From: a virus | Length of the DNA: 64,000 bases | Virus record (IMG/VR): IMGVR_UViG_3300025674_000030 | Location: 1 to 64,000 of that record | Direction: 5' to 3' (one strand) | Part shown: positions 6,420-61,284 of the stretch, piece after piece | How the letters are laid out: each line of letters starts with the position of its first letter | How positions within the stretch are numbered: position 1 is the stretch's first letter | Translations under genes and position numbers: made by a program | Notes under the pieces: model-generated | What the model saw: only the letters and a program-made list of their open reading frames with translations | The model's database searches: none | Told to the model about the DNA's origin: nothing

Positions 6420-6434
6420 AAAAAATTTATAGAT

Positions 6435-6470: not shown

Positions 6471-6492
6471 AATAAAATCACCAAGGAAAAAA

Positions 6493-7715: not shown

Positions 7716-8120
7716 ATGTTAACAGTGGAAGAGTTTAATAAAATACAAAAAATTGAAAATGCAAAAAATATTGCAATAGATTTTGATGGCGTTATTCATG
7801 CCTGCTCAAAAGGCTATTATGATGGTACTGTTTATGATGTACCAATTGAAGGATCTCTAAAAGCATTAGAAGCATTACATAATAAGGGATTTAGCATTTT
7901 TATATATTCATGTAAAAGTAGATCAGATAGACCCGAGGTTGATGGAAAAAATGGAACACAAATGATTTGGGATTGGTTAGAAAAACACAATGTTAAACAA
8001 TATGTAACTGATGTAGTATCAGAAAAGCCAAGAGCCATATGTTTCATTGATGATAAAGGAGTTCGTTTTAACAATTGGGAAGACACATTTGAGCAATTAA
8101 AAAAAATAGGCATTTTATGA
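7716..8120 (+). CDS. HAD-superfamily phosphatase
   Basis: Small haloacid-dehalogenase-fold hydrolase of 134 aa. Motif I is AIDFDGVIH (about residues 21–29) with the nucleophile Asp and the general-acid Asp two residues later. Motif II is IYSCKSRSDRPE, and the metal-binding motif is FIDDKGVRF near residue 108. No large cap domain is present. Given its place directly after the SIS isomerase and CMP-sugar synthetase, dephosphorylation of a sugar phosphate (a GmhB- or KdsC-like role) is the best inference. A nucleotidase role is also possible. The ATG directly abuts the previous stop, and the gene ends in an ATGA overlap with the next epimerase. Confidence 0.7.
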   Translation: MLTVEEFNKIQKIENAKNIAIDFDGVIHACSKGYYDGTVYDVPIEGSLKALEALHNKGFSIFIYSCKSRSDRPEVDGKNGTQMIWDWLEKHNVKQYVTDVVSEKPRAICFIDDKGVRFNNWEDTFEQLKKIGIL

Positions 8121-48346: not shown

Positions 48347-49473
48347 GTAATGAGTTCGATTTTCTGCCACCAGCAGAAGCACCCCCATCATTCAACCAAG
48401 AAAAAGACCACTTCCACGAAGAAGTAGAAGCGGAAGACTTTGGTATGGTTGAGGACTTCGGATTACAGATGGAATACTCTGACGAAGATATGCTACCCGA
48501 GAACACAGCCCCATCATCTTTGAATGTGGGTTTTGTTGGTGTTGGTGGCGGCGGCAATAAGATGGTCAATGCTATGATTGAGTTGGGTTTCAACAAGACC
48601 CTGATGGTTAATAGCACCGGTAAGGACATACCGAAGAACGTAGAAGAAGAGCACGTCGTTCTTATTCCCGATAGCGATGGCATCGGCAAGAACATCGCCT
48701 ACGGCAAAGAAATCCTAACACAGAACGGCGCTATTGTAGAAGACGCTCTGCGTATCAAGTTTGGTAAGGTTGATTGGTTGTTCGTGATGGCAGGTGGTGG
48801 TGGTGGCACTGGTTCGTCCGTAGTAGCACTACAGCCCGTCTTTGAGCGCTACCTACAATCTGTTCAGGCAAGCGGCAAGGTTGTCTACATTGTCTCTTGG
48901 CCAACAGCGCAAGAGAACCTAAACCCAACCATTGCCAAGAACGCCCTATCACTACTCAATGATGTAACTCCTTATCCACACATTGTTCTAGATAACGAGC
49001 GCTCTACACGCCTCCTGCGTGGTCGTATTGGTATGCTTGGAATGTACCCAGTAGCCAACACCCAGTTTTCAAAGATCTTCGCGCAGATACTCAAGTTGTC
49101 TACCGAAGACTCTCCAATACAATCTTTTGACTCCAAGGACTTAGAGACTTGCTTTGGCAAGGACGGTCGTGCCTTTATTGGTTCCACAATGATTAAGGAT
49201 CCCAATACTGGTAAGTTGGGTACCACCATAATGCACAACTGTATGAACCGCTCTGCTTGCCCACCACCCAAGGGCAAGGCCGCAGCAGGCTCTCTTATCC
49301 TTGTAGTCAGCGAAGAAATGGTTGCCGACCCTCGCGTATCTAAACACCTTGAGTCTGCGATTGCTTATGTTGGCGGTCGCTGCGAGACACTTTTCTCTGG
49401 TGTTTATGTCAGAAAGAATGTTCCCGGACTGATTGCGATACTAAGTATGAATGGGATCGAGAAAGGAAAGTAA
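48343..49473 (+). CDS. Tubulin/FtsZ-superfamily GTPase
   Basis: 376 aa, ATGA-coupled to the nuclease. After a ~60-residue acidic extension comes VGFVGVGGGGNKMVNAM (T1 loop), then the tubulin signature AGGGGGTGSS at residues 150–159 (T4 loop). The T7-loop block FDSKDLETCFGKDGRAFIG has Asp263 and Asp266 in the place of the catalytic Asps of FtsZ (xDxxD…GxAxxGS), so GTP hydrolysis at a subunit interface is likely retained. The protein stops soon after the core and lacks an FtsZ-type C-terminal peptide, arguing against simple mimicry of host FtsZ binding to FtsA/ZipA. Roles known for phage tubulins include centring and rotating phage DNA or moving capsids; interference with host division is the alternative. 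Confidence 0.88.
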   Translation: MSNEFDFLPPAEAPPSFNQEKDHFHEEVEAEDFGMVEDFGLQMEYSDEDMLPENTAPSSLNVGFVGVGGGGNKMVNAMIELGFNKTLMVNSTGKDIPKNVEEEHVVLIPDSDGIGKNIAYGKEILTQNGAIVEDALRIKFGKVDWLFVMAGGGGGTGSSVVALQPVFERYLQSVQASGKVVYIVSWPTAQENLNPTIAKNALSLLNDVTPYPHIVLDNERSTRLLRGRIGMLGMYPVANTQFSKIFAQILKLSTEDSPIQSFDSKDLETCFGKDGRAFIGSTMIKDPNTGKLGTTIMHNCMNRSACPPPKGKAAAGSLILVVSEEMVADPRVSKHLESAIAYVGGRCETLFSGVYVRKNVPGLIAILSMNGIEKGK

Positions 49474-49477
49474 ATAA

Positions 49478-49921
49478 ATGAAAGTCACCAAGTCACAACT
49501 AAAACAGATTATCTTAGAAGAGCTTGAAGTTGTGCTCACTAATGAAGAAGTTGAAGAGATGTTTGGCGAGGAGGTTCGCAAAGAAGTGGAAGAAGGTCTT
49601 TTTGGTGGCGAACTTGATGTATCGATGAAAAAATCCCCTCAACGTGGCAAAGTTCATTCAAAAACTAGCCGAGAAGAGGAGCGGTTGCAAAGATTTCTTG
49701 ACTCTGTAACAGCGAATATAGAAAACGAAAAGCAAAAAAGAAGCATTACTAACAAAATAATAGCATTCTTGAATGCAGAAAAAGAACAACTAAAGAAAGA
49801 TTTCATGATCCCAGAGCAGGAAAATAATCCTTGGGCTATTTGCACAGCTTCTGTGGGTCGCGAAGATAAAGAAAAATATGAAAAATGCGTTAAAAGCGTA
49901 AAAAGGAGAAACAAAAAATGA
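49478..49921 (+). CDS. Head-region protein with MKxTK N-terminal peptide (copy 1)
   Basis: 147 aa. The first 18 residues (MKVTKSQLKQIILEELEV) belong to a peptide repeated at the start of several proteins in this region. It contains I-L-E, compatible with the [LI]-x-E cleavage rule of the gp21 prohead protease. The body is charged and helical, with two Cys near the end (WAICTASVGREDKEKYEKCV). A role as a capsid-internal protein delivered by the N-terminal peptide is inferred. No known family recognised. Ends in an ATGA-type overlap with copy 2. Confidence 0.65.
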   Translation: MKVTKSQLKQIILEELEVVLTNEEVEEMFGEEVRKEVEEGLFGGELDVSMKKSPQRGKVHSKTSREEERLQRFLDSVTANIENEKQKRSITNKIIAFLNAEKEQLKKDFMIPEQENNPWAICTASVGREDKEKYEKCVKSVKRRNKK

Positions 49922-50196
49922 AAATCACAAAGACTAGACTAAAGCAGATTATCAAAGAGGCATTAGATGATATATCTTCTGATGATGTTCTTGGTCGTAC
50001 CGAGCCAAGATATTTTGATGATGAAGGCGAGCGCGCTTTTGATCCCTCTGATGCTCGTGATCTTAGAGATAGATTGGTAAAAGCTATTAGATCCGGGGCG
50101 TTCGATAGCCTATCAGATGAGAACATGGAGTTTGCAAGGAGGCTTTTCGGCCCTGCTTTTGACGATCTAAGAAAGCAATATGGCAGAGGACAATAG
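49918..50196 (+). CDS. Head-region protein with MKxTK N-terminal peptide (copy 2)
   Basis: 92 aa starting MKITKTRLKQIIKEALDDIS, the same peptide as its neighbours (AAAAGGAGAAAC precedes the ATG). The rest is acidic, with RYFDDEGERAFDPSDARDLR and a C-terminal helix (MEFARRLFGPAFDDLRKQYG). The unrelated bodies following a common N-terminus suggest a sorting or assembly tag. Function otherwise unknown. Confidence 0.65.
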   Translation: MKITKTRLKQIIKEALDDISSDDVLGRTEPRYFDDEGERAFDPSDARDLRDRLVKAIRSGAFDSLSDENMEFARRLFGPAFDDLRKQYGRGQ

Positions 50197-50200
50197 ACTA

Positions 50201-50755
50201 ATGAAAATCACAAAATCAGAACTTTTCAATCTCATTAAAGAGGAGATTATGTCCGAGATGGATGTCCTCACTATGATGGATGACCCAAACGATGATTCTC
50301 AAGAGCCAGAATCTTTCAAAGATATGGATCAGGTAGCCGAGATGATGGAGAACGCTGTTCTTACTTCTATGGATAGTCCAATCGCTTTGATCTCAAACTT
50401 CCTTGTGACAACGCAGGGAGGACATGAGACACCAACAGAACTTGTGAGAGAAGGTATGCAAATGCTCCATCAAGCAGGTTTCCGTGAGCCTGATGCCAGT
50501 GTTATTGAAAAAATGATAAAAGATGAAATGGACAGTGGATATTACGACACTACCTATTACGCCGACGGCGAAGGTGTAGCGCCGATGCCCACTGATGATC
50601 GGCACTTGAGAGAGGGTATGGAAAACATTACCCCAGAAAATATGCAACTCGTTATGGATGCAATGAAAAAGATGGCGCCTCTAGTTGGAGCTATATCTCT
50701 ACCAGTTTTAATTGGTCTTATTTATGATCAGTTTAGGAAAATGGGTGCCAAATGA
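50201..50755 (+). CDS. Head-region protein with MKxTK N-terminal peptide and C-terminal hydrophobic helix (copy 3)
   Basis: The start is taken at ATG 50201, where the shared peptide begins (MKITKSELFNLIKEEIMSEM); an upstream in-frame ATG at 50180 lies inside the previous gene. 184 aa, acidic and methionine-rich, with one hydrophobic C-terminal helix (MAPLVGAISLPVLIGLIYDQ) that could span a membrane. Tag plus membrane helix would be unusual for a purely internal capsid protein. It overlaps the following small membrane-protein gene. Confidence 0.6.
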   Translation: MKITKSELFNLIKEEIMSEMDVLTMMDDPNDDSQEPESFKDMDQVAEMMENAVLTSMDSPIALISNFLVTTQGGHETPTELVREGMQMLHQAGFREPDASVIEKMIKDEMDSGYYDTTYYADGEGVAPMPTDDRHLREGMENITPENMQLVMDAMKKMAPLVGAISLPVLIGLIYDQFRKMGAK

Positions 50756-50955
50756 TGAGCAAAGAACAAAAGCAAGCACTACTCGATAGGGGCATACAAA
50801 AACTAACTTCCCGCAAACTACTTGTGTGGCTTACTGCTACAGGTCTTATGGCTTGGGGCGGCCTAGAATCAGCAGACTGGGTTATCATATCTGGTCTTTA
50901 TCTCGGTGGTCAGTCTGTGATTGACGCTATTGTAAAACTCAAGGGACTTGAGTGA
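50752..50955 (+). CDS. Two-helix small membrane protein, holin candidate
   Basis: 67 aa (66 if ATG 50755 is used). Two hydrophobic segments are visible, LLVWLTATGLMAWGGL and WVIISGLYLGGQSVIDAIV, with a positively charged N-terminus and KLKGLE end. Size and topology fit a class II holin. The next two genes also encode membrane-anchored coiled-coil proteins. Holins lack a sequence signature, and no endolysin is adjacent, so this is a contextual proposal. Confidence 0.5.
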   Translation: MMSKEQKQALLDRGIQKLTSRKLLVWLTATGLMAWGGLESADWVIISGLYLGGQSVIDAIVKLKGLE

Positions 50956-51332
50956 AAGAGAAAATCCTAGCATTTTGCTTAAAACACTGGAAGGAGATCG
51001 GGCTTGTCCTGCTCCTTCTTGTTGTCTTTGGTAAGTCACAATATGATGTACGCAACATAATCAAAGCGCATGAGATTGCCGAACAGTCCTTAAAAGATCA
51101 GATAAGCACCCTACAATCCCTCCACACCGAAGAGTTGCGCCTGCGCGATGAAGCCCTTGAACGCTACCGCATAGAGATAGAAGAGTTGGAGTTGGAATAC
51201 GAAGCACGACAAGCCGAAATAAAAGACTTAACGAGAGCAGAAAAAGAAGTTATAATAAAAGAGTTCAAACAAGACAAGGCCCTGATTATACAGCGCTTTG
51301 AAGAAACCTACGGATTAAGATATGTTGAATAG
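50952..51332 (+). CDS. Membrane-anchored coiled-coil protein, i-spanin-like
   Basis: 126 aa from GTG 50952 (GTGA overlap). A short basic N-terminus is followed by one transmembrane helix (IGLVLLLLVVFGKS, about residues 17–30), then about 90 residues of charged heptad-like helix (LRDEALERYRIEIEELELEY). This is the layout of inner-membrane spanins (Rz). The adjacent gene could encode the partner. It could also be a general structural coiled coil. Confidence 0.5.
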   Translation: MKEKILAFCLKHWKEIGLVLLLLVVFGKSQYDVRNIIKAHEIAEQSLKDQISTLQSLHTEELRLRDEALERYRIEIEELELEYEARQAEIKDLTRAEKEVIIKEFKQDKALIIQRFEETYGLRYVE

Positions 51333-51732
51333 TCTAATACTGCTTGTTATACTCTCAACTGCAAGTGCCGAAGACTTTACTGTCCTCTCTGAAAATCAAC
51401 CCGCTCCATTCGAGGGTGTTTTACTTAGTGTTCCTGCTGCCGCAGAAATATTAGCCAAACAAGAAGAAACACAGATGCAGTGTGAGCTTGAAATAGAGTT
51501 TCAGCTTGATAAGGCGGGAACTCAATGTAAGCTCGATAAAGAACTCCTTGAGGCACGTATCTCAACGCTTGAAAACCAATATACCGAGATTATAGCACAA
51601 AAAAATCTTGTTATTGATAAGCAGCAAGAAATCATCAAGAAGCAGGCACCGCATCGTAAGTGGTTGTGGTTTGCTGGCGGTGTTGTACTTGGTGGCGCCA
51701 CTTATTACGGAATTCAACAGGCAGCAAAATGA
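51322..51732 (+). CDS. Exported coiled-coil protein with C-terminal membrane helix
   Basis: 136 aa, overlapping the upstream gene by 11 nt. The N-terminus looks like a signal peptide (LILLVILSTASAEDF, cleavage likely after ASA). Then comes a helical region with two cysteines (MQCELEIEFQLDKAGTQC), a coiled coil, and a C-terminal transmembrane helix (WLWFAGGVVLGGATYYGI). No lipobox is seen, so it is not a standard outer-membrane spanin. Perhaps a unimolecular-spanin-like or envelope protein. Confidence 0.5.
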   Translation: MLNSLILLVILSTASAEDFTVLSENQPAPFEGVLLSVPAAAEILAKQEETQMQCELEIEFQLDKAGTQCKLDKELLEARISTLENQYTEIIAQKNLVIDKQQEIIKKQAPHRKWLWFAGGVVLGGATYYGIQQAAK

Positions 51733-52277
51733 AGCACACTAACTTACCATTTCATCTTTATGTGTGGGTTAACAACAAATACCTTGGCCCTAAAATGCCT
51801 GAAGGCTATACATATGCCCTGTGGCACGGTATTCATTCAAGAGAGGGACAAATCCCCATGGCTCACGTTTTGTTAGAAAGTGGTGCTCACTGGTCTGGTT
51901 TGCCACTACACGCTATGTCTAACTTCCACGGCCCAAGCACTTGGGAAGAGAAGCCACACGGCGATTTAATACCTTGGACTGCTATGGGCCCAGACATAGA
52001 GGCGTGGCACGCAAAGTATCTTGAAGGACTTGAGGTAGAGCTATTTCGCTATGGATGGAAAGGCAAACATACAGGCATAATAATCGACTGGACTAATGGA
52101 TTTGACAGATACCCACAGGAGCACAAGCCTCTTAATCTTGTTTCTCTTGATGATGGGCAGTTTGCTTTACAGCCAAACAACTATTGTAGATTTAGAGATG
52201 ACCACTTTATAGACAAATCTAAGTTTGAACAAACCAAGTTCTATCGCAGAGGCGAAGAGGTTTGGTGGGGTCAATGA
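51729..52277 (+). CDS. Unknown Trp/His-rich protein
   Basis: 182 aa from ATG 51729 (ATGA overlap); the frame is open further upstream but that part lies inside the previous gene. It is rich in Trp, His and Tyr (YALWHGIHSREGQIPMAHVL, then LLESGAHWSGLPLHAM and LIPWTAMGPDIEAWH). Several His/Glu/Asp could form a metal or active site, but no known motif is matched. A cytoplasmic enzyme or phage-specific structural factor are both possible. Confidence 0.6.
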   Translation: MKHTNLPFHLYVWVNNKYLGPKMPEGYTYALWHGIHSREGQIPMAHVLLESGAHWSGLPLHAMSNFHGPSTWEEKPHGDLIPWTAMGPDIEAWHAKYLEGLEVELFRYGWKGKHTGIIIDWTNGFDRYPQEHKPLNLVSLDDGQFALQPNNYCRFRDDHFIDKSKFEQTKFYRRGEEVWWGQ

Positions 52278-52654
52278 GCAAAGATCCAGATTACATTGTA
52301 AGAGTAGAACAAGCTATTGCTGACAAGTATGGTGACGAAGCAATCCAGAACCCCAAAGCAGAATGGGACGAGAACAAAGAGAAAGTCTATCTGGAGCAGA
52401 TGCGAGAACTCTACAAAAAGCAAAAGAAAAACGACGAAGCCAACGATAAAGTAGAAGTAAATGGGATAAAGGTTTCAAGAAAACTACTTAATAGAGAATC
52501 CAAGACAGGGTGTCCTGTTTGTGGTGCTTTCTCACATTCTACCCGTGATGATGTATCGCTTGTAAAGTTTGACTGCTGCTACAAGTGCTATATCAAGTGG
52601 GTTGATGGGAGAGAAGAGCGCTGGAATAACGGGTGGAGACCCAAACAAAACTAG
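52274..52654 (+). CDS. Zinc-knuckle protein, unknown function
   Basis: 126 aa from ATG 52274 (ATGA overlap; in-frame TTG 52262 is less likely). The N-terminal part is a charged helix (NKEKVYLEQMRELYKKQKKN). The C-terminal part has CPVCGAF and then CCYKCYIKW about 25 residues later, a four-cysteine zinc knuckle. The fold is reminiscent of small phage zinc-finger proteins that bind nucleic acid. It precedes the terminase area, so a packaging accessory role is conceivable. Confidence 0.6.
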   Translation: MSKDPDYIVRVEQAIADKYGDEAIQNPKAEWDENKEKVYLEQMRELYKKQKKNDEANDKVEVNGIKVSRKLLNRESKTGCPVCGAFSHSTRDDVSLVKFDCCYKCYIKWVDGREERWNNGWRPKQN

Positions 52655-52656
52655 CA

Positions 52657-52666
52657 ACTACTTATT
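52657..52666 (+). promoter_or_regulatory. Candidate late promoter element
   Basis: ACTACTTATT, one mismatch from the ACTATTTATT element, in the 28-nt gap before the gene at 52683 and just upstream of AAAGGAAC. Suggests a separate late transcript for 52.7 kb onward. Confidence 0.3.
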
Positions 52667-52682
52667 TCAAAGGAACACTACT

Positions 52683-53231
52683 ATGGCAACAGTTTACGAA
52701 ATCGTTCAGGGCTTGTCGCAAGCCGCTGCAAATGCTTATGATGGAGCAATGACCGAAGAGGGAGAGCCCGTAAAGGCAGGGCTAAAGAGAGAAGAGGGCA
52801 ACCCCCTTATTGATAAGCGCGTTATGGATGGCTTCAATGTCAAGTTCCACGGTAATATCATGCGTCTCTCTTATATGTCCGAGGTTACCTTGAAGGAAGT
52901 TTATGCAAGCGGATTTGAATCTGAGGTTGAGTCACAGATGAATGAGATAGTAAAGTTTCTCAAGAAGGAGGCTCGCAAGATTACTGGCACCACTCCATCG
53001 CTAACAAAACAGGGGGAGATTGATATTCGTGTTGAGAATTCATCTCGTGTGCGCTCTTGGGTTACCGCCTGTTTAGAGTACAAGGTTGGTGGAATGGAAG
53101 AAGTTGCTGTTGTTGGAGAAGCTACCGAGGACAAGCTTGCCGCTGGCTGGGAAGCCTTTATGAAGCAGGGCGGCCTTGGAACTCGCCCAAAGAACGATAA
53201 GAGACCTAAGAACTCAGGAGACAAGAAGTGA
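52683..53231 (+). CDS. Conserved-looking soluble phage protein
   Basis: 182 aa; ATG 52683 follows AAAGGAACACTA. α/β composition with a helix-rich middle (VESQMNEIVKFLKKEARKIT), a strand TKQGEIDIRVENSSRVRSW, and a basic disordered C-terminus (GTRPKNDKRPKNSGDKK). It immediately precedes the tag-bearing 65-aa protein and the terminase. The family is not recognised. A packaging or portal-associated role is suggested by position only. Confidence 0.6.
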   Translation: MATVYEIVQGLSQAAANAYDGAMTEEGEPVKAGLKREEGNPLIDKRVMDGFNVKFHGNIMRLSYMSEVTLKEVYASGFESEVESQMNEIVKFLKKEARKITGTTPSLTKQGEIDIRVENSSRVRSWVTACLEYKVGGMEEVAVVGEATEDKLAAGWEAFMKQGGLGTRPKNDKRPKNSGDKK

Positions 53232-53425
53232 AAGTTACAAAAACCTTACTAAAGCAAATAATCAAGGAAGAGCTTGAAGAAATGCAGGGCACTGACTCAA
53301 TGCGTGATTTTGAAACCGAAATTGGCGTTTTGATCGAAAAGGCAATAGCCCTCGCAATGGAGGCTAGATTATCAAGAGTTGAAGATATTCTTACTTCTGC
53401 TCACGAAGAGTTAATGGGTCTATAG
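53228..53425 (+). CDS. Small protein with MKxTK N-terminal peptide (copy 4)
   Basis: 65 aa from GTG 53228 (GTGA overlap). It begins MKVTKTLLKQIIKEELEEMQ, almost identical to copies 1, 2 and 5. The remaining ~45 residues are a helical acidic body (IGVLIEKAIALAMEARLSRV). It lies directly before the large terminase. The small terminase subunit is a possibility by position, but the tag suggests an internal head protein. Confidence 0.65.
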   Translation: MKVTKTLLKQIIKEELEEMQGTDSMRDFETEIGVLIEKAIALAMEARLSRVEDILTSAHEELMGL

Positions 53426-53434
53426 TGGGTATGA

Positions 53435-55015
53435 ATGCCAAGATTAACGAAAAAGCAAATACTCAAAGAAGTCGTTAAATGCGGCAAAGATCCATCTTAT
53501 TTCCTCAAGAACTATGCCCGTATATCTCACCCGATGCACGGGCTTATGTTATTCAACACATTTGATTATCAGGACGAACTCCTAAAAGACTTCAACGACT
53601 ACCGTTTTAATATCATCAACAAAGGTCGTCAGTTGGGTATCTCAACGATTACTGCTGGCTACATTGTTTGGATGATGTTGTTTCATCGAGACAAAACCAT
53701 TCTTGTCATGGCAACTAAGTTTGAGACAGCAGGCAACTTGGTCCGAAAAGTCAAAAACATTATGAAGAACCTTCCTGACTGGATCAGAATTGCAAATATC
53801 ACAACCGACAACCGCACGTCCTTTGAGTTGTCTAATGGCTCTTCTATCAAGGCTGCCTCCACTTCTGGCGATGCTGGTCGCTCTGAGGCACTATCGCTTC
53901 TTGTTCTTGACGAGGCTGCACACATTGAAGGTCTAGAAGAGTTGTGGACTGGTCTGTACCCGACACTATCTACTGGTGGTCGTTGTATCGCCATCTCTAC
54001 ACCAAATGGTGTTGGTAACTGGTTCCACAAAACCTGCACAGGCGCCGAAAGCGGAGAAAACAACTTCAATCTAACGACGCTGATGTGGTGGGTTCATCCC
54101 GAAAGAGATGAAGAATGGTTCAAGAAAGAAACCAAAAATATGTCCAAGAGGCAGATTGCACAGGAGTTGGAGTGCAACTTCAATACTTCGGGTGAAACTG
54201 TTATCGATCCAGAGAATATGGAATGGATTATGTCCAACATTAGAGAACCAAAACATAAAACTGGATTTGATAGAAACTTTTGGATCTGGGAAGAGTATGA
54301 TCCAAGCTGCAACTATCTCATGTCAGTAGATGTAGCAAGAGGCGATGGTGCAGATAGTTCTACATTTCATATCCTTAAGCTTGAAACTATGGAAATTGTT
54401 GGTGAGTATATGGGTAAGCCAACTCCCGATTTGTATGCTAATATGCTAAATCAGGTTGGTAGAGAGTTTGGAAACTGTATGCTGGTCGTAGAAAATAACT
54501 CTATTGGCTATACTGTCATAGATAAATTAATAGAGTATGGCTATCCCAACCTCTACTATTCGATTAAATCTACACACGAATATATTGATCAACATCTTGG
54601 CGAACACAGGACAGGTGCCGTTGCTGGTTTTTCCACAACAAGCAAGACTAGACCGCTCATTGTTGCCAAGCTAGAAGAGTTTGTAAGAAACAAACTAGTT
54701 AAGACGTATTCTTCACGTTTGGCAAACGAGTTCCGTACTTTTATTTGGTATAACGGGAAGCCACAAGCCATGAGGGGCTACAACGATGACTTGGTGATGG
54801 CTCTTGCGATTTGTTGCTGGGTGCGGGACACAGCCTTGCAAACAAACGCACGAGACTTAAACTACCAAAAAGCGTTCGTTGATTCAATCATGACTTCAAG
54901 GACTACCCTAAACACGCAAATAAAAGGACAAATTGGCTACACAGGAGAAGATACCACAAGTAGAATGAACGAAGCAAAAAACCTATATTCCCAATACATG
55001 TGGATAATAAAGTGA
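53435..55015 (+). CDS. 17: Terminase large subunit (gp17-like)
   Basis: 526 aa. The ATPase domain has the T4-type Walker A NKGRQLGIST (residues 63–71), Walker B LLVLDEAAH (Asp159, Glu160) and coupling motif AISTPNG (186–192). The RNase H-like nuclease domain shows Asp299 in SVDVARGDGAD, Glu353 in VVENNSIG, and Asp451/452 in GYNDDLVMAL. It pumps DNA into proheads and cuts concatemers. The start at ATG 53435 is preceded by TAGTGGGT; an out-of-frame ATG 4 nt upstream ends quickly. T4 gp17 is 610 aa; a somewhat shorter C-terminus is normal in marine relatives. Confidence 0.95.
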   Translation: MPRLTKKQILKEVVKCGKDPSYFLKNYARISHPMHGLMLFNTFDYQDELLKDFNDYRFNIINKGRQLGISTITAGYIVWMMLFHRDKTILVMATKFETAGNLVRKVKNIMKNLPDWIRIANITTDNRTSFELSNGSSIKAASTSGDAGRSEALSLLVLDEAAHIEGLEELWTGLYPTLSTGGRCIAISTPNGVGNWFHKTCTGAESGENNFNLTTLMWWVHPERDEEWFKKETKNMSKRQIAQELECNFNTSGETVIDPENMEWIMSNIREPKHKTGFDRNFWIWEEYDPSCNYLMSVDVARGDGADSSTFHILKLETMEIVGEYMGKPTPDLYANMLNQVGREFGNCMLVVENNSIGYTVIDKLIEYGYPNLYYSIKSTHEYIDQHLGEHRTGAVAGFSTTSKTRPLIVAKLEEFVRNKLVKTYSSRLANEFRTFIWYNGKPQAMRGYNDDLVMALAICCWVRDTALQTNARDLNYQKAFVDSIMTSRTTLNTQIKGQIGYTGEDTTSRMNEAKNLYSQYMWIIK

Positions 55016-55022
55016 GAAAATA

Positions 55023-57014
55023 ATGGCACCAAAAAATCCAAAGCAAGGTGGAAACCCCGCCAACAGACAGTCGCAGTTATTCAAATCTCTTACAAGACTC
55101 TTTTCAGGCCCTATCGTTAGTTACCGTTCAGAGTCTGGTCGTAAGATTCGTAGACAACATTTGGATAAATACTCAACCAGATTCAAATCAGCATCTGGGC
55201 AACAGTTCAAAAAGCAGTCTTATAATCCTTTAGATACAATCGCTGCAAACGCTATTGCAAACCAGCGTCGCTCAGAGCGCTACATTGACTTTGATCAAAT
55301 GGAGTACATGCCTGAGTTGGCCTCCGCTCTTGATATATACGCAGATGAAATGACTACATTTTCTGCACTTTCTCCAATGTTGAATATTAAGTGTCGCAAT
55401 GATGAAATCAAGGCAGTCCTCAACATTCTTTACCACAACGTAATGAATATAGAGCACAACCTCTTTGGCTGGTGTCGTACAATGTGTAAGTATGGCGATT
55501 TCATTATGTATCTGGATATTGATGAGAACGAAGGTATTCAGTCTACGATTGCCCTTCCTTTACAGGAAGTTGAAAGACTGGAAGGTCTTGATGCCACAAA
55601 CCCAAACTATGTTCAGTATCAGTGGAACTCTGCTGGGATGACATTTGAGAACTGGCAGGTTGCACATTTCCGAATCCTCGGTAACGACAAATATTCACCA
55701 TACGGCACTTCTGTACTAGAACCTGCCCGTCGTATCTGGCGCCAACTAACCCTTATGGAAGATGCCATGATGGCATACCGTATCGTTCGTTCTTCTGAGC
55801 GAAAGGTGTTCAAGATTGATGTTGGTGCTGTTCCTCCACAGGAAGTTGAGCAGTTTATGCAAAAGATTGTATCTCAGCTAAAACGCCACACAATTGTTGA
55901 TAAAGATACTGGTCGCATTGATTTGCGATATAATCCACTGTCAATCGAGGAGGACTACTATATTCCTGTTCGCGCCGGCTCTGTGACAGATATTCAAAAC
56001 CTTGGTGGTGGACAAAACACAACCGCTATTGATGATATCAAGTATCTTCGTGACAAGATGTTTTCTGCCATCAAGATACCACAGGCTTATCTCACAATGG
56101 GCGAGGGTGCCCAAGAAGATAAGACTACACTTGCCACCAAGGACATTCGCTTTGCGCGTACCATTCAGCGCCTACAGCGTTCTGTTCTGCATGAGTTAGA
56201 GAAGATTGGTATTATTCACCTCTATACTCTTGGATATAGAGGCGAGGATCTTCTAAACTTTAAACTTGCACTCAATAACCCAAGCAAGATTGCTGAGCTA
56301 CAAGAGTTGGAGCATTGGAAGAACAAGTTTGATATTGCGGCCTCTGCAACCGAAGGTTATTTTTCTCGTCGCTGGGTTGCTGATAATATTTTTGGCATGT
56401 CTCATGAAGAGTTCCTGCGCTGTCAGCGTGAACAGTTTTATGATCGCAAGCATGACACAGCACTTGAGGGCGTTGCAGAAGTACCAGTAGAAGAATCCGG
56501 CGGTGGTGGTGGGCTTGATCTTGGCGGCGGCGAAGGCGGCGAGCTTGATCTTGGGGGTGCCCCAGAGGGCGAGGTCGATCTCGGAGCCGATGATACTGGT
56601 GCTGAAGAAACAGGTGGCGGCGAAGAGTCTGCACTTTTGGCAGAACCTCCCGGCTCTCGTGATTCTCCACGCCTTGCAAAATCACTAGGTAGCCGTGCCA
56701 GAACAGGAAAAAAATATGTCACCAAGAAATCCAAAGGCAAAGCCTACCAGAAGGTAGCCGTAGATAAGCGCCCTGCTGGTGCCAGAAGTAGAAACTATTC
56801 AAGTATCCCAACTCCCGAAATGAACACATATAGAACTAACAATCTTGGTGCTCCTGAGTTAAGATCTTTGTCTAGAGGTATTTATGAAGACAAAGACTCT
56901 ATTTACCAAAGAGAACAAAAAGAAGAACAGGCTCTTCTTGAGGTTAATAGCTCTGTCAAGTTCTTAATAGAATCATTAGAAACAAAAGCTACGGAGAATA
57001 AAGATGAAGAATAA
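55023..57014 (+). CDS. 20: Portal protein (gp20-like) with long disordered C-terminal tail
   Basis: 663 aa. The core matches T4-type portals: RYIDFDQMEYMPELASALDI, YGDFIMYLDID, FRILGNDKYSPYGTSVLEPA, the stem region RIWRQLTLMEDAMMAYRIVR, and DKMFSAIKIPQAYL near residue 345. The core ends near residue 490. A Gly/Asp/Glu repeat segment (three 10-residue units) follows, then a basic stretch (SRARTGKKYVTKKSKGKAY). The last ~60 residues end in helix VNSSVKFLIESLET. T4 gp20 is 524 aa, so about 140 residues are extra. The dodecameric portal is the DNA channel and initiates prohead assembly; the acidic/basic tail could dock scaffold or terminase. Confidence 0.93.
   Translation: MAPKNPKQGGNPANRQSQLFKSLTRLFSGPIVSYRSESGRKIRRQHLDKYSTRFKSASGQQFKKQSYNPLDTIAANAIANQRRSERYIDFDQMEYMPELASALDIYADEMTTFSALSPMLNIKCRNDEIKAVLNILYHNVMNIEHNLFGWCRTMCKYGDFIMYLDIDENEGIQSTIALPLQEVERLEGLDATNPNYVQYQWNSAGMTFENWQVAHFRILGNDKYSPYGTSVLEPARRIWRQLTLMEDAMMAYRIVRSSERKVFKIDVGAVPPQEVEQFMQKIVSQLKRHTIVDKDTGRIDLRYNPLSIEEDYYIPVRAGSVTDIQNLGGGQNTTAIDDIKYLRDKMFSAIKIPQAYLTMGEGAQEDKTTLATKDIRFARTIQRLQRSVLHELEKIGIIHLYTLGYRGEDLLNFKLALNNPSKIAELQELEHWKNKFDIAASATEGYFSRRWVADNIFGMSHEEFLRCQREQFYDRKHDTALEGVAEVPVEESGGGGGLDLGGGEGGELDLGGAPEGEVDLGADDTGAEETGGGEESALLAEPPGSRDSPRLAKSLGSRARTGKKYVTKKSKGKAYQKVAVDKRPAGARSRNYSSIPTPEMNTYRTNNLGAPELRSLSRGIYEDKDSIYQREQKEEQALLEVNSSVKFLIESLETKATENKDEE
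56511..56600 (+). repeat. In-frame 30-bp tandem repeat in the portal gene
   Basis: Three units with an exact 30-bp period begin at 56511, 56541 and 56571. Each encodes a xLDLGG-like 10-residue unit (GLDLGGGEGG, ELDLGGAPEG, EVDLGADDTG). A fourth, degenerate unit may follow. The repeat is more GC-rich than the rest of the gene and probably arose by slippage. Confidence 0.85.
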
Positions 57015-57834
57015 GCACAATAAGAAGAGAAATACAGCCTTTGTATTTGAAGCGCTTGCAAGAGAAGCAACTGTGGCAATTGTAAAGGGCGATCAGGAGC
57101 GTAAAGCCAAGGTTGTTTCAATTGTTCGTAAGCACTTTACCGGCGACTCTCTTCTGAAGAAAGACCTTGAGTGCTATCGTTCACTTTACGAAAACCAAAA
57201 TCTTGACAAGAACACAAGCCAAAAGATTCTTGAAGCAGTGATGGCAGCAAAGCGCTTAATCGATCCAGATGGCCTTTTTAAGCAGCAGACCGAAGTTATC
57301 AATGATATCAACAAAGAACTAACTCCTGCTACTTTTAACAATTTTGTTCCCAACTATAAGGCACTTGCCACCATTGCAAAAATGTTTAATACTGATTCAC
57401 CAAAGCAAAAGGTAATGCTTGAAGAGAAAATAATAGAAGGTATGTCTGGAACTCTTATAGAACATACTATGCAGCCCATCGATAGTATTACTTTTGCAAC
57501 TTTTACCAAGAAATTTAATGACAAATATAGCTCCTCTTTATTAAAAGAGCAAAAAGAACTAATAAATCATTACATATCATCTTTTGCAATTGATGATTTA
57601 GAAACTAAAATTTACCTCAACCGCGAACTTGGTCGCTTGAAAGAAAGCTTAGAGAAGGCAACTGAGGTAGAAGAGGTTGCTTCTGATCAAGAGATGATCA
57701 ATAAAACGAAGTTGGTCAAAGAGCGGCTCGAATCACTTTCTGGCGACACAACTCTTACAGAAGCAACCCTCTTCACAATTTTGAAAACTCAAGAACTCGT
57801 AAAGGAAATCTACGACGATGGCAGTAACAGTTAG
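57004..57834 (+). CDS. Helical head-region protein of unknown function
   Basis: 276 aa, overlapping the portal gene by 11 nt. Almost entirely helical and charged, starting with a basic N-terminus (MKNKHNKKRNTAFVFEALAR). The position between portal and prohead protease is where T4 has core genes 67 and 68. It does not resemble those in size, but a scaffold or portal-assembly role fits. A run such as LIEHTMQPIDSITFATFTKK has no known motif. Confidence 0.6.
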   Translation: MKNKHNKKRNTAFVFEALAREATVAIVKGDQERKAKVVSIVRKHFTGDSLLKKDLECYRSLYENQNLDKNTSQKILEAVMAAKRLIDPDGLFKQQTEVINDINKELTPATFNNFVPNYKALATIAKMFNTDSPKQKVMLEEKIIEGMSGTLIEHTMQPIDSITFATFTKKFNDKYSSSLLKEQKELINHYISSFAIDDLETKIYLNRELGRLKESLEKATEVEEVASDQEMINKTKLVKERLESLSGDTTLTEATLFTILKTQELVKEIYDDGSNS

Positions 57835-58390
57835 AATTGTTCCAATCCCAGAGCCCGTTAAGGTTACAATCAAGCCTAAAGCTCCTCCTCCTAAAGTAAC
57901 TTTAGAGCTAGACATTCGCAAGTCTCTTAGTGGCGATCTAATGATTTTTGATCATGGTGACATTGATATTGTTTTATCTGGTAAAGACAAGAAGATTACT
58001 GCGTTCCCCAAGCAAACACAAACTGATTTTACCTATGGCGCCCAAAATCGTTTGTTTAGTCATCTTGCTAGAAAGGGCATCGTCATTCCTGAGTCTATTC
58101 AGGGCGGTTCATTTTATGGCGCCATGGAAGCATCTCTACAAGAAGCAGCAGATGGCAAACTAAACGCCGCCAAGTTTGCACTCATAAGCATTGAGAAGTT
58201 CATAAAAGAAGAGAAGCCATACTATGAACATGTAGAAGCTATTGTTGGCAGTACCGAGGACGAATATATTAATCCCGACAAGACTGACTCTACTGAGCTT
58301 GGCGAAGTCCCACAGCGCGACGAGCAAGGTTCTATCCGAAAGGGCTATGTCCGAGATCCTTACACCTTCTCTTACATGTATACAATATAG
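57818..58390 (+). CDS. Head-region protein of unknown function
   Basis: 190 aa with AAGGAAATC before the ATG, overlapping the previous gene by 17 nt. It has a proline-rich β N-terminus (IVPIPEPVKVTIKPKAPPPK), a globular middle (DLMIFDHGDIDIVLSGKDKK) and a C-terminus ending YVRDPYTFSYMYTI. The N-terminal extended segment may thread along a partner. No family recognised. It lies between the portal and protease genes, so a head-assembly or neck role is inferred. Confidence 0.6.
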   Translation: MAVTVRIVPIPEPVKVTIKPKAPPPKVTLELDIRKSLSGDLMIFDHGDIDIVLSGKDKKITAFPKQTQTDFTYGAQNRLFSHLARKGIVIPESIQGGSFYGAMEASLQEAADGKLNAAKFALISIEKFIKEEKPYYEHVEAIVGSTEDEYINPDKTDSTELGEVPQRDEQGSIRKGYVRDPYTFSYMYTI

Positions 58391-58398
58391 GAGGTTAC

Positions 58399-58740
58399 AT
58401 GGAGATAGTTTTATTTATTCTTTTTGCTTACGGACTAACACAAATATTAGTCTATAGTGATATGCCAATCCTAAAAAGATTAAGGCCAAGCAAAGAATCC
58501 TACAGGGGCTATGGCAAGGTGTTTCATTGCCCCATGTGTATGGGATTTCATGTTGGTTGGTTTTTGTGCCTTCTTTCTCCTTGGACAGAACTATTTACGT
58601 TTGATGTTACAATAGTTAATGCTTTTTTGCTTGGCTGTCTTTCGTCTGCGACTTCTTATGTTTTAAACATGGTGTTCTCTGACGAAGGAATCATGATAAA
58701 GCACAACTACAAGCATGAAAACTATTTTGGAGAAGAATAA
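58399..58740 (+). CDS. Membrane protein with CPMC motif, DUF1360-like
   Basis: 113 aa; AGGAGG precedes the ATG. It has three probable hydrophobic helices (EIVLFILFAYGLTQILVY, GFHVGWFLCLLSPW, VNAFLLGCLSSATSYVLNMV) and the motif FHCPMCMGFHVGW. This resembles small phage/bacterial DUF1360-type membrane proteins with a conserved C-P-x-C-x-G-F. Function of that group is unknown. It interrupts the head genes and is coupled by overlap to the next tagged protein. Confidence 0.6.
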   Translation: MEIVLFILFAYGLTQILVYSDMPILKRLRPSKESYRGYGKVFHCPMCMGFHVGWFLCLLSPWTELFTFDVTIVNAFLLGCLSSATSYVLNMVFSDEGIMIKHNYKHENYFGEE

Positions 58741-58985
58741 TGAAAATCACAAAAAGCAGACTAAGACAGATAATCAAAGAAGAACTTCTTAAAGAAATAA
58801 AAGAAGGCGAAGAAATTGAAATGTCTGATCTTTATGCTGACTATGGTGAAGATCCAATCGAAGCACTACAGAAAAGAAGAGATGAGTTGGAACCTAGGCT
58901 GCGCACAGCAAAAGATGCTGAGTATTACATGAAGCTAACCAGAGAAATTGTGAGGCTAAAGCTTGAACGGGAGAAACAACAATGA
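58740..58985 (+). CDS. Small protein with MKxTK N-terminal peptide (copy 5)
   Basis: 81 aa beginning MKITKSRLRQIIKEELLKEI, the shared peptide. The remainder is a charged helix (EALQKRRDELEPRLRTAKDA, then LTREIVRLKLEREKQQ) likely to form a coiled coil. It sits just upstream of the protease and could be a prohead core protein analogous in size to T4 gp67 (80 aa), though no direct similarity is seen. Confidence 0.65.
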   Translation: MKITKSRLRQIIKEELLKEIKEGEEIEMSDLYADYGEDPIEALQKRRDELEPRLRTAKDAEYYMKLTREIVRLKLEREKQQ

Positions 58986-59047
58986 ACAACTTTCTACTAT
59001 CTAAGTGGGGACTACAGCCAGTCCGTCGTTGTTGCAAGGGCTCCTAG
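58982..59047 (+). CDS. 21-codon mini-ORF, possible leader peptide
   Basis: ATG 58982 overlaps the stop of the preceding gene (ATGA) and encodes MNNFLLSKWGLQPVRRCCKGS, ending at TAG 59045–59047. It spans the first two of three small hairpins in the gap before the next gene. Translation could change folding of this RNA, as in leader peptides. It may equally be spurious. Confidence 0.3.
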   Translation: MNNFLLSKWGLQPVRRCCKGS

Positions 59048-59067
59048 CTCGCGCGGGTAACGCCCGC
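59009..59067 (+). other. Cluster of three RNA hairpins
   Basis: Three adjacent stems: GGACT-ACAGCC-AGTCC (59009–59024), GGGCT-CCT-AGCTC with one G·U pair (59038–59050), and GCGGG-TAACG-CCCGC (59053–59067). GGGC (59038–59041) can alternatively pair with GCCC (59062–59065). The stretch is far more GC-rich than its surroundings. The last stem is followed by ACAAAGGAAAACA and no T-run, so it is not an ordinary terminator. It lies 14 nt before the start codon of the core-like gene at 59082 and may control its translation or mark an RNA-processing site. Confidence 0.45.
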
Positions 59068-59081
59068 ACAAAGGAAAACAA

Positions 59082-59312
59082 ATGAAACTCATATTAGAAA
59101 ACTGGAACAATTTTGTTAACGAAGAGGGGGAACTCGAAGAGGCAATGGCAAAAAATATCAAAGCTGAAAAATTGCCAAACGGTTTCTATCGTTTTTATGA
59201 TTATGAATCACAGTTATCAGGTCTTTATAATCCCGACGGCACAATGCGAAGCGGAGACCTTAACCTAAATAAGAAATTTGTTCAAACAAAAATATTGGAA
59301 CTAACAAAATGA
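59082..59312 (+). CDS. Small prohead-core-like protein
   Basis: 76 aa, preceded by AAAGGAAAACAA. The N-terminus MKLILENWNNFVNEEGELEE resembles the T4 capsid-targeting peptide style (M-K-x-Y-x-E-F-I-x-E), a signal that brings internal proteins into the prohead and is trimmed by gp21. The body is short (KLPNGFYRFYDYESQLSGLY). It is immediately upstream of and coupled (ATGA) to the protease gene. Core protein or protease partner is a reasonable inference. Confidence 0.6.
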   Translation: MKLILENWNNFVNEEGELEEAMAKNIKAEKLPNGFYRFYDYESQLSGLYNPDGTMRSGDLNLNKKFVQTKILELTK

Positions 59313-59908
59313 AACTACTAAGAGAATACTACGAACTATGTGAAGGCGGCGTATGCCAAGACCTTCTTACCGAAGACGAGAAGCGCTTTGTTTCCAACGG
59401 TGGCATGATGCTTACAGGCAAACTACAAGAGGCTGACGTGCAAAACGGCAACGGTCGTGTCTATCCTCTTAAGGTTTTAGCCAGAGAAGTGCAAAACTAC
59501 CAGAAGCTTGTAAAAGAAAATAGAGCGCTTGGCGAACTAGATCACCCAGACGATTCTGTTATCAATCTAAAAAACGCTTCTCACATGGTTACAGCTATCT
59601 GGATGGAAGACAAAGCTGTCATGGGTAAGGTCAAGGTTCTTAACACTCCGTCAGGTCAGGTTCTTAAGTCTCTAGTAGAGTCGGGTGTCAAGCTTGGCAT
59701 TTCTTCTCGCGGTATGGGCTCTGTGTCTGAAGCTGCTGGCAACGTGGTTGTCCAAGAAGACTTCCAGCTTATCTGCTTTGACTTTGTGTCTGAGCCATCT
59801 ACACCAAATGCTTTTATGATGCGTGAGGCAAAAGAATATAACAATAGAGTATTTACAAAAGCAGATCGCATTAACAGACTATTAAATGAGGTATTAAAAA
59901 ATGAATAA
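59309..59908 (+). CDS. 21: Prohead maturation protease (gp21-like)
   Basis: 199 aa, similar to T4 gp21 (212 aa). It has the family's N-terminal strand MLTGKLQEADVQNGNGRVYP and catalytic His79 in GELDHPDD. The nucleophile region is LGISSRGMGSV (Ser132/133), followed by DFQLICFDFVSEPSTPNAFM. The serine protease assembles inside the prohead core, cleaves core, internal and capsid proteins after [LI]-x-E sequences, and destroys itself. Its own N-terminus (MKLLREYYELCEGG) resembles the tag of its substrates. It is coupled by overlaps to both neighbours. Confidence 0.92.
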   Translation: MKLLREYYELCEGGVCQDLLTEDEKRFVSNGGMMLTGKLQEADVQNGNGRVYPLKVLAREVQNYQKLVKENRALGELDHPDDSVINLKNASHMVTAIWMEDKAVMGKVKVLNTPSGQVLKSLVESGVKLGISSRGMGSVSEAAGNVVVQEDFQLICFDFVSEPSTPNAFMMREAKEYNNRVFTKADRINRLLNEVLKNE

Positions 59909-60599
59909 AGCAGATTTACAAAAAATTCTATTGGAAGAAATAGGGACTGCAATAAACGAAGAGGAGCTTGATGAACAGAGTTTCCTCAAAAGAGTTGCCT
60001 CTGCCATGAAGAGAACGAGACGAGGCGATGAAAGAAGGGCACAAAGAGCCAAAGCAAGGCGCAAAGGTGCTGGCGCCGTGGATGATGCTGGCGAAGCTCC
60101 CGAAGATGTAAGCCCCCCAAAACCAGCAGCAAAAGAAACAAAAACTGTATCTTTATTTAAAGATATTATGCCAGAAGTTATAAATGATCATGGTCGCTCT
60201 ACAGAGCAGAAGATCCGTATTAGAGCCAAATTTACAAAACTAGGAAAGGCTCTGAAGAGGGATAGAATTTTAAATAAAGAAATATCATCTTCTAAGAAAG
60301 AAGAAGCTAAAAAGCGAAGACGTGCTGCTGCCGAAAACATAAAATCATTAAAACAAGCTATGAGTAGGGCAATAGAAAAGGAGAGCAGAAAAGCAATAAG
60401 AGCAAATACCGATATGGGTTCTTACAAAACCCCCGAACAAGCCAAGCAAAAGGTAAGCGAGGAACTGGCTAAACTTTTTCAAGATGATGCAATCGTAAAT
60501 CAAATTCTATCTTTTATTGATGATGATATGAGGCTAACCGAATCATTACTAACAAGAGTTGTACTTGAAAATCTCAAGGGCAACAAGGTGGTGTTGTGA
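59901..60599 (+). CDS. 22: Basic/charged prohead core (scaffold) protein candidate
   Basis: 232 aa, immediately after the protease, where T4 has gene 22 (major scaffold). It begins MNKADLQKILLEEIGTAINE, a variant of the N-terminal tag with I-L-L-E-E. It is dominated by Lys/Arg/Ala-rich helices (MKRTRRGDERRAQRAKARRK, then KKEEAKKRRRAAAENIKSLK) and ends with an acidic/hydrophobic segment (LSFIDDDMRLTESLLTRVVL). T4 gp22 is also highly charged and helical, but more acidic. The gene 22 label is positional. Confidence 0.5.
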   Translation: MNKADLQKILLEEIGTAINEEELDEQSFLKRVASAMKRTRRGDERRAQRAKARRKGAGAVDDAGEAPEDVSPPKPAAKETKTVSLFKDIMPEVINDHGRSTEQKIRIRAKFTKLGKALKRDRILNKEISSSKKEEAKKRRRAAAENIKSLKQAMSRAIEKESRKAIRANTDMGSYKTPEQAKQKVSEELAKLFQDDAIVNQILSFIDDDMRLTESLLTRVVLENLKGNKVVL

Positions 60600-61027
60600 A
60601 CAAAGCACAGCTAAAATCTCTAATCAAGCCAGTTGTTAAAGAGTGCATTCAAGAAGTCCTAATAGAAGAAGGGCTTCTTACAGAGGTGGTCTCACAAGTT
60701 GCGGCTGGTATGTCCAAGCAACCAATTGTCGAGAATAAGCCAAAGAAAAAGAACAACAATCTATTTAATGAAGACTTGCAAATGCAACGCAAGTCCCGAG
60801 AGGCGAATAAGAAACTACAAGAGCATCGCAAAAAGCTACTAGACTCAATTGGTCAGGATGCATATAATGGTGTAGATCTTTTTGAAGGCACCGAGCCCAT
60901 GAGGGAATCGGGAACACCCGGAGTATCCCATAGGCCAAATGTCCTAGGTGATAACCCAAGCGATGCAGGAGTAGATATCTCTTCCCTAATGGGACAAGCA
61001 AACAAAGTTTGGCAAGCACTTAAATAG
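60596..61027 (+). CDS. Second core-like protein with N-terminal tag variant
   Basis: 143 aa from GTG 60596 (GTGA overlap). N-terminus MNKAQLKSLIKPVVKECIQE, then VLIEEGLLTEVV with L-I-E, which suits a gp21 cut. The middle is a Lys-rich charged helix (RKSREANKKLQEHRKKLLDS). The C-terminal part is polar (GTPGVSHRPNVLGDNPSDAG) and ends in a short helix. The pairing with the previous gene suggests both are internal head proteins. Confidence 0.55.
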   Translation: MNKAQLKSLIKPVVKECIQEVLIEEGLLTEVVSQVAAGMSKQPIVENKPKKKNNNLFNEDLQMQRKSREANKKLQEHRKKLLDSIGQDAYNGVDLFEGTEPMRESGTPGVSHRPNVLGDNPSDAGVDISSLMGQANKVWQALK

Positions 61028-61035
61028 GAATAACA

Positions 61036-61284
61036 ATGAGTAGACGCAAAAGTGCAAATGTTGTCGTTAATGCAAGAGAGTGCAGGGGCAACCACGAGAA
61101 GATGATCCGTAAGTTTATAAAGAAGTGCAAGAAAGTAAAGATTCTTGAACAAGTCAGAGAGCGCAGATATTTTAAGAAACCCTCAGATGTTAAACGACAT
61201 GCAAAGCAGGCAGCTATTCGCAGGCACCGCCGCGAAGTAGCAAAGCAAAAGGCAAGAGAAGCCCGCCGCGAAAGAAATAGTTAA
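61036..61284 (+). CDS. rpsU: bS21 ribosomal protein homologue
   Basis: 82 aa, highly basic. The core follows bS21 of bacteria: VVVNARECRGNHEKMIRKFI, KKCKKVKILEQVRERRYFKK, PSDVKRHAKQAAIRRHRREV, then a K/R-rich tail. Compare the bacterial pattern V-V…E…ALRRFKR..EK.GIL.E.RRRE.YEKPT..RKR.K..A.KR. bS21 sits on the 30S platform next to the anti-Shine–Dalgarno end of 16S rRNA and affects initiation. Phage copies are known from marine phages and may exchange into host ribosomes to favour phage mRNAs. It lies between head and fibre genes. AGGAATAACA precedes the ATG. Confidence 0.88.
   Translation: MSRRKSANVVVNARECRGNHEKMIRKFIKKCKKVKILEQVRERRYFKKPSDVKRHAKQAAIRRHRREVAKQKAREARRERNS

What the first reader, a model, noticed from the sequence alone, without database searches (positions are those of the whole stretch)
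49478..60655. Shared N-terminal peptide on unrelated small proteins in the head region: candidate capsid-targeting tag
Five genes (49478, 49918, 50201, 53228, 58740) start with nearly the same peptide, MK[VI]TKxxLxxxIxEE. Looser versions begin the proteins at 59901 and 60596. The protein bodies after the tag are unrelated. The genes flank terminase, portal and the gp21 protease. T4 delivers internal proteins with a short N-terminal capsid-targeting sequence that gp21 removes after [LI]-x-E. Each tag here has an I/L-x-E in a similar place (IIKE, IILE, LIKE, ILLE). This could be a set of packaged internal or injected proteins defined by one tag, with a consensus different from T4. An alternative is a common partner-docking helix.
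Basis: partly seen in the sequence, partly recalled or inferred. Interest (0 to 1): 0.78.

Follow-up and report, generated by a model that had tools for sequence, protein, structure and literature searches.

The report
Shared packaging-tag candidate in marine phages
Five otherwise unrelated small proteins of this T4-like marine phage begin with the same short peptide, which occurs on hundreds of unrelated proteins in related phages and looks like a removable 'put me inside the virus head' label, so it could reveal which unknown proteins these phages carry into their hosts.

Summary
The five tagged genes are real. A profile of the tag finds exactly these five starts in the 72.6-kb contig; the two 'looser' ones are not members. 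The tag is a protein-level module (codons vary freely) on at least 242 unrelated bodies in marine viral contigs. It is essentially absent from random viral contigs (0/44) and from bacterial or archaeal genomes (13 stretches in 257 Gb). Tagged contigs carry the T4-type S77 prohead protease (34/50 against 7/44 in random contigs), never the HK97-type one. Tags lie upstream of that protease on its strand. Conservation ends at residue 22, in [LIVM]-x-E followed by A/G/S/N. This is the cut rule of T4 gp21 and the LLRE|A/S motif at the homologous place in these viruses' own capsid proteins. The same body can carry different tags joined at such a site. Best reading: a capsid-targeting propeptide, cut by the S77 protease, defining a large set of packaged and probably injected proteins. 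A second tag class (ENWxxFLxE), also at window 59082, appears to do the same job. Packaging and cleavage are inferred, not shown.

The parts
49478..49921 (+). Tagged protein 1 (147 aa): MKVTKSQLKQIILEELEVVLTNEE...; candidate sites VEE|M27/28, VEE|G39/40; no canonical site at 22
   Evidence: (E 3e-9)
49918..50196 (+). Tagged protein 2 (92 aa): MKITKTRLKQIIKE|ALDDISS...; candidate site IKE14|A15
   Evidence: (E 2e-11)
50201..50755 (+). Tagged protein 3 (184 aa): MKITKSELFNLIKEEIMSE|MDV...; candidate site MSE19, aligned with LAE|A and MKE|A in relatives
   Evidence: (E 2e-4)
53228..53425 (+). Tagged protein 4 (65 aa, GTG start): MKVTKTLLKQIIKEELEEMQG...; weak candidate site LEE18|M
   Evidence: (E 3e-7)
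58740..58985 (+). Tagged protein 5 (81 aa): MKITKSRLRQIIKEELLKEIKE|GEE...; candidate site IKE22|G23; single-sequence AlphaFold model: helix 5-22, then a low-confidence stretch 24-32
   Evidence: (E 3e-10)
59082..59312 (+). Protein with the second tag class (76 aa): MKLILENWNNFVNEEGELEE|AMAK...; same body carries the MKITK tag in relative L221
59309..59908 (+). S77 prohead protease (gp21-type), the presumed processing enzyme; own N-terminus holds LCE12|G
   Evidence: Pfam PF03420 6e-30, PHROG 207, PDB 5jbl 4e-15, catalytic residues
53435..55015 (+). Large terminase subunit (context)
55023..57014 (+). T4-type portal protein gp20 (context)
   Evidence: Pfam PF07230 6e-77
59901..60599 (+). Not a member: MNKADLQKILLEEIG..., variable gene downstream of gp21; holds LDE25|Q
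60596..61027 (+). Not a member: conserved gene MNKAQLKSLIKPVVKECIQEVLIEEGLL..., possibly a core or head protein

Best explanation
The first ~22 residues (MK[IV]TKxxLxxIIKEE[LI]xxx[LVI]xE) are a capsid-targeting propeptide. Steps: (1) the tag forms an amphipathic helix (inferred from composition and from one AlphaFold model); (2) the helix binds a component of the prohead core or scaffold, so that any protein carrying it is built into the prohead (inferred by analogy with the T4 CTS); (3) the S77 protease encoded next door cuts after [LIVM]-x-E, usually at residue 21/22 before A/G/S/N/Q, or at residue 14 when residue 15 is A/S/T (site statistics shown, cutting inferred); (4) the freed bodies stay in the head and are injected with the DNA, where their diversity suggests variable early or counter-defence jobs (inferred). 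The tag is a portable module: unrelated bodies share it, and one body can carry different tags.
For: Modular: 322 bodies fall in 242 unrelated clusters, and a 110-protein alignment leaves only MKITKxQLKxIIKEE......E as consensus. Protein-level, not DNA-level: all six Leu codons are used at position 8, and Ile and Thr codons also vary. Linked to S77: 34/50 tagged contigs >=30 kb, 19/20 of those >=100 kb, against 7/44 random contigs (p=3e-7); 0/50 have the HK97-type S78 protease; tag in 0/44 random contigs. Niche: 27/32 relatives with >=9 kb of DNA upstream of gp21 have the tag, always on the gp21 strand, at -0.2 to -1.1 kb or -6 to -10 kb, never downstream. Cut site: conservation falls to background right after E22. 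Given hydrophobic P3 and small P1', P1 is E in 50/81 tag-end sites against 13/277 body sites (p=1e-27). E22 and a small residue 23 co-occur (46/78 against 39/149, p=1e-6). Canonical sites are found in ~48% of tag ends against 4-5% of body windows of similar length, and are less frequent when IIKE|[AST] already exists (9/34 against 93/195, p=0.025). Same rule in the viruses' own capsid protein: LLRE|A/S (or close variants) at the place homologous to the T4 gp23 cut, 32 distinct capsid proteins. Tag swaps: window 59082 against L221:7870, and L105/L090/L278, with different tags joined to one body at LEE|A, IAE|A, LNE|M, LLE|S. T4 gp21 cuts after L/I-X-E and T4 CTSs are 10-19 residues (PMC9026906).
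Against: No virion proteomics is at hand for these viruses, so packaging and cutting are unproven. Only ~56% of tagged proteins (129/229) have a canonical site with a small P1'; in the window only 49918 and 58740 have one near the tag end, and 49478 and 53228 have weak ones. S77 linkage is partly shared ancestry, not 50 independent events. In 240-290-kb contigs the tag genes lie far from S77. Bodies are mostly acidic (mean charge -0.05 per residue), whereas T4 internal proteins are basic. A helix end could also favour Gly after the tag.
Confidence: 0.77

Rival explanations
1. Retained docking helix: the tag binds a common head or assembly partner (scaffold, portal or inner capsid surface) and stays on the protein; there is no proteolytic removal.
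For: The tag is a predicted amphipathic helix (helical moment 0.39 against 0.25 in bodies; helix 5-22 in the model of 58740). About 44% of tagged proteins lack a canonical small-P1' site.
Against: The P1=E preference, the E22/small-23 coupling and the match to the capsid protein's own LLRE|A/S motif are not expected of a docking helix; Glu at a helix C-terminus is unfavourable (own knowledge). Tag swaps join at LxE sites.
Confidence: 0.12
2. Targeting to the host membrane or another assembly site: a cationic amphipathic N-terminal helix brings proteins to the membrane where T4-like proheads start, or to another infected-cell compartment, without being packaged.
For: Amphipathic Lys/Arg-rich helix; prohead assembly of T4 begins on the inner membrane (PMC5694885).
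Against: Does not explain the protease link, the end of conservation at LxE, or the exchange with ENW-type tags.
Confidence: 0.05
3. Recombination by-product: a well-translated gene start (RBS plus first codons) has been copied onto many small genes, with no function for the peptide itself.
For: Tandem clusters of tagged genes; gene starts are joined to different bodies.
Against: Residues are fixed while synonymous codons vary across the set, so selection acts on the peptide. The upstream sequences differ between genes. Conservation reaches residue 22, beyond the initiation region.
Confidence: 0.04

Closest known systems
T4 capsid-targeting sequence (CTS) of internal proteins IPI-IPIII and Alt
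   Same: Short N-terminal peptide shared by otherwise unrelated head proteins; gp21/S77 protease encoded by the phage; candidate cut after [LI]-x-E before a small residue; bodies highly variable (PMC3012670, PMC9026906).
   Different: Consensus MKITKxxLKQIIKEELxxxLxE is unlike the T4 CTS; ~22 instead of 10-19 residues; many more tagged genes per genome (up to 16 exact matches); bodies mostly acidic; no hit to the tag profile in the T4 genome. Packaging not shown.
Long propeptides of phiKZ-like giant phages (SPN3US, 201phi2-1)
   Same: Inner-head proteins processed after a short x-x-E motif by a prohead protease distantly related to gp21; two SPN3US paralogues share an identical N-terminal 15-mer (PMC5694885).
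   Different: Motif A-X-E instead of [LIVM]-x-E; propeptides mostly >100 residues; no small shared tag on hundreds of unrelated bodies described there.
Phage P1 DarB capsid-targeting signal
   Same: N-terminal signal, sufficient to carry a reporter into the head (PMC9024508).
   Different: P1 Pro is compared with the HK97-type protease in that paper, not with gp21; no sequence resemblance was tested; described for one protein.
ENW/W-type tags found here (MKxIMENWxxFLxE, WSSF...WRKFLxE)
   Same: Same viruses, same gene slots around gp21, unrelated bodies, [FYLIV]-x-E ending; exchanged with the MKITK tag on the same body.
   Different: Trp-centred consensus closer in shape to T4 MKTYQEFIAE; the residue after E is often acidic (27 E and 13 D of 86), so the exact cut is less clear.

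Membership tests
T4-type capsid-targeting sequence / internal-protein system | Short N-terminal sequence shared by proteins with unrelated bodies | tested here: met
   242 body clusters under one tag; consensus limited to residues 1-15 and E22
T4-type capsid-targeting sequence / internal-protein system | Phage encodes an S77 (gp21-type) prohead protease | tested here: met
   Window 59309, PF03420 6e-30 with His/Ser conserved; 34/50 tagged contigs
T4-type capsid-targeting sequence / internal-protein system | Tag ends in the protease's cleavage motif ([LI]-x-E before a small residue) | tested here: met
   Set-wide statistics and capsid-protein motif; incomplete in individual window genes (49478, 53228)
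T4-type capsid-targeting sequence / internal-protein system | Sequence similarity to the T4 CTS (MKTYQEFIAE) | tested here: not met
   The MKITK tag profile finds nothing in the T4 genome; the ENW/W tags resemble the T4 CTS more. Hence 'works like', not 'homologous to'
T4-type capsid-targeting sequence / internal-protein system | Tagged proteins are inside the virion and their N-termini are cut | not testable with these tools
   Needs virion mass spectrometry; no data held
T4-type capsid-targeting sequence / internal-protein system | Tag alone directs a reporter into the head | not testable with these tools
   Needs a fusion experiment
HK97-type (S78) prohead protease systems | S78 protease in the tagged genomes | tested here: not met
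   0/50 tagged contigs have PF04586

The most novel reading that the evidence does not exclude
A deep-branching marine clade of T4-like phages uses at least two interchangeable, protease-removed N-terminal labels to load an open-ended cargo of small, mostly unknown proteins (up to 16 exact tag matches in one contig; among the few recognisable bodies a pentapeptide-repeat protein, a GNAT acetyltransferase, and in the second class an ADP-ribosyltransferase-like protein and NUDIX hydrolases) into the head for injection, so that the tags alone mark the injected arsenal in metagenomes.
Probability: 0.55. Interest if true: 0.85.

Novelty: new variant of a known kind. Interest (0 to 1): 0.74.

Why it matters
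If true, a 22-residue signature turns hundreds of 'hypothetical proteins' of abundant marine phages into a defined class: proteins carried in the head and delivered with the DNA, the class that in T4 includes anti-restriction proteins. It would give a sequence-only way to list injected proteins in metagenomes, show that capsid targeting has been re-invented or diversified beyond the ten-residue T4 label, and supply a new portable label for loading proteins into phage heads. It makes directly testable how general the CTS strategy is outside the T-even phages.

Tried and rejected
tblastn with the bare 22-aa tag against the phage collection gave nothing, probably because of the low-complexity filter; a profile search of chosen records replaced it. 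59901 and 60596 as members: rejected. Cut at IIKE14 as the general site: rejected for most members, kept for those with A/S/T at 15. HK97-type protease or capsid in tagged contigs without S77: none found (S78 0/50; HK97-type capsid 0/16); 15 of these 16 also lack the T4 portal, so they look like fragments. Nucleotide-level or duplication explanation: rejected. Basic, DNA-binding bodies as in T4 internal proteins: not the case on average. Structure of 50201: AlphaFold confidence too low to use (pLDDT 38). No paper describing this peptide was found in the held library (text searches for MKITK and IIKEE; topic searches); subscription papers and preprints are not covered.
Full report
WHAT WAS CHECKED. 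The window lies in a linear IMG/VR virus record of 72,646 bp, with the predicted genes on the + strand. Genes at 49478, 49918, 50201, 53228 and 58740 begin MK[VI]TKxxLxxxIxE[EA] behind Shine-Dalgarno-like sequences. Their bodies are not related to each other and match no known Pfam or PHROG family at useful significance. A profile made from other viruses' tags finds exactly these five places in the contig. The two 'looser' versions at 59901 and 60596 fail the profile and share only 1-2 of 16 residues with the five; they are dropped.

CONTEXT. The cluster surrounds a large terminase gene (53435), a T4-type portal (55023) and an S77 prohead protease (59309; PF03420 6e-30, PHROG 207, PDB 5jbl). 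T4 gp21 H85 and S140 (numbers from my own knowledge) align with H79 and S132 here. Closest cultured relatives are Flavobacterium phage immuto and Microcystis phage Mel-JY01, about 40% identical in the portal.

HOW WIDESPREAD. The same pattern in 85,000 bacterial and archaeal species genomes (257 Gb) gave 13 stretches in nine metagenome-assembled genomes, at least some of them from marine samples by their titles; these may be viral contigs binned with the MAGs (inference). Random viral contigs >=30 kb had none (0/44). With looser patterns and the S77 relatives, 322 tagged bodies fall in 242 sequence clusters. An alignment of 110 of them has the consensus MKITKxQLKxIIKEExxxxxxE and almost nothing after it. 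Synonymous codons vary at conserved residues, so the peptide and not the DNA is under selection.

LINK TO THE PROTEASE. 34 of 50 tagged contigs >=30 kb carry S77 (19 of 20 when >=100 kb) against 7 of 44 random ones (6 of 11 when >=100 kb), p=3e-7 overall. None of the 50 has the S78 protease. The 16 without S77 also lack an HK97-type capsid protein, and 15 of them lack the T4 portal, as expected of fragments. Around 79 relatives of the window's gp21, tags occur only on the gp21 strand and only upstream, in two niches: 0.2-1.1 kb and 6-10 kb before gp21; 27 of 32 loci with enough upstream DNA have at least one. In 240-290-kb contigs the tag genes form clusters far from S77. The association reflects one broad clade, so the contigs are not independent trials.

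THE CUT SITE. Conservation is high to residue 16, moderate to E22, and at background from 24. Given a hydrophobic P3 and a small P1', P1 is Glu in 50/81 places at the tag end against 13/277 in bodies (p=1e-27). E22 and a small residue 23 are coupled (p=1e-6). A site [LIVMF]-x-E-[AGSNQT] occurs at the tag end in 93/195 proteins against 4-5% of body windows of similar length; in the 34 proteins that already have IIxE|[AST] at 14/15 only 9 have the downstream site (p=0.025). In the same viruses the major capsid protein has LLRE|A/S or close variants at the position homologous to the T4 gp23 maturation site (32 distinct sequences). T4 gp21 cuts after L/I-X-E, and T4 CTSs are 10-19 residues long (PMC9026906). 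A single-sequence AlphaFold model of 58740 shows a helix at 5-22, a low-confidence stretch at 24-32, and then a helical body. For the window genes the sites are good in 49918 (IKE14|A) and 58740 (IKE22|G), plausible in 50201 (relatives have LAE|A and MKE|A there), and weak in 49478 and 53228.

TAG EXCHANGE. Window gene 59082 starts with another shared peptide, MKLILENWNNFVNEE. Its body, from ELEE|A on, is 76% identical to L221:7870, which carries the MKITK tag instead. A second body occurs with three different starts, joined at IAE|A, LNE|M and LLE|S (L105, L090, L278). The ENW/W class was seen on 119 proteins, in the same slots around gp21. Identical cargo with different labels that end in the same kind of site is what a removable targeting label predicts.

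WHAT THE CARGO IS. Nearly all bodies are unknown. Of 110 MKITK proteins, single members match pentapeptide repeats (L031), GNAT acetyltransferase, FliG_C, DUF5824 and two further weak families. Of 92 W-tag proteins: NUDIX twice, and singly GNAT, LigT phosphoesterase, LysM, guanylate kinase (possibly a chance start), and an ADP-ribosyltransferase-like protein below Pfam's cut-off. T4 Alt, a packaged and injected ADP-ribosyltransferase (own knowledge), makes the last suggestive. None matches replication or tail families.

INTERPRETATION. Shown: a portable, protein-level N-terminal module; its link to S77; its ending in the S77-type motif; its exchange with another module. Inferred: helix docking to the prohead core, packaging, proteolytic removal, and injection. 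Membership in the T4 CTS family is not claimed, because sequence similarity to the T4 CTS was tested and not met; 'works like a T4 CTS' is the claim, at about 0.77. Rivals are a retained docking helix (0.12), membrane or site targeting (0.05) and a recombination by-product (0.04).

TESTABLE MODEL. The tag profile finds nothing in T4, KVP40, S-RSM4, RM378, SP-15, Callisto or megaphage LR756511, weak variants in uncultured megaphage LR756508, weak matches in Mel-JY01, and a match in cultured Flavobacterium phage immuto, whose gp080 starts MKKSQLRQIIKEALDAS. A second immuto protein starts MKKSELVKLIKEELN. Immuto is therefore the natural organism for virion proteomics and fusion tests.

Noticed in passing
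window 48343-49473 (+): Tubulin/FtsZ-family GTPase (PF00091, 5e-9) directly upstream of the first tagged gene; T4 itself has none, whereas phiKZ-like phages have a tubulin spindle (own knowledge).
   Followed up: partly
window 61036-61284 (+): Phage-encoded ribosomal protein S21 homologue (PF01165, 2e-8) inside the head module, kept at the same place in relatives and, as an annotated RpsU, in Microcystis phage Mel-JY01.
   Followed up: partly
L238, L253, L408-L427 (major capsid proteins): In tagged viruses the capsid protein pro-region also keeps a second LTE|G motif at residues ~9-12 besides LLRE|A/S, as if cut more than once.
   Followed up: no
L215:747-1544 (+); also L197:438, L230:213, L059:8088: Reading frames holding two tags in line (MKIKKSELLALIKEE... 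twice in L215) or a tag in mid-frame, which could be polyproteins cut between cargoes or overlapping starts.
   Followed up: no
L246:5529, L247:9569, L258:4556 and L229:7724: A second shared motif, (L/I)DEGF(L/F)(D/G), follows both MKITK- and ENW-type tags, in L246/L247/L258 before Ala/Gly/Lys-rich bodies; possibly a second cut site.
   Followed up: no
window 1069-10749 (+): By sequence reading a run of sugar-metabolism genes (glycosyltransferase-, epimerase- and dehydrogenase-like); the one tested, 8929-10749, is a GlmS-type SIS/glutamine amidotransferase protein.
   Followed up: no
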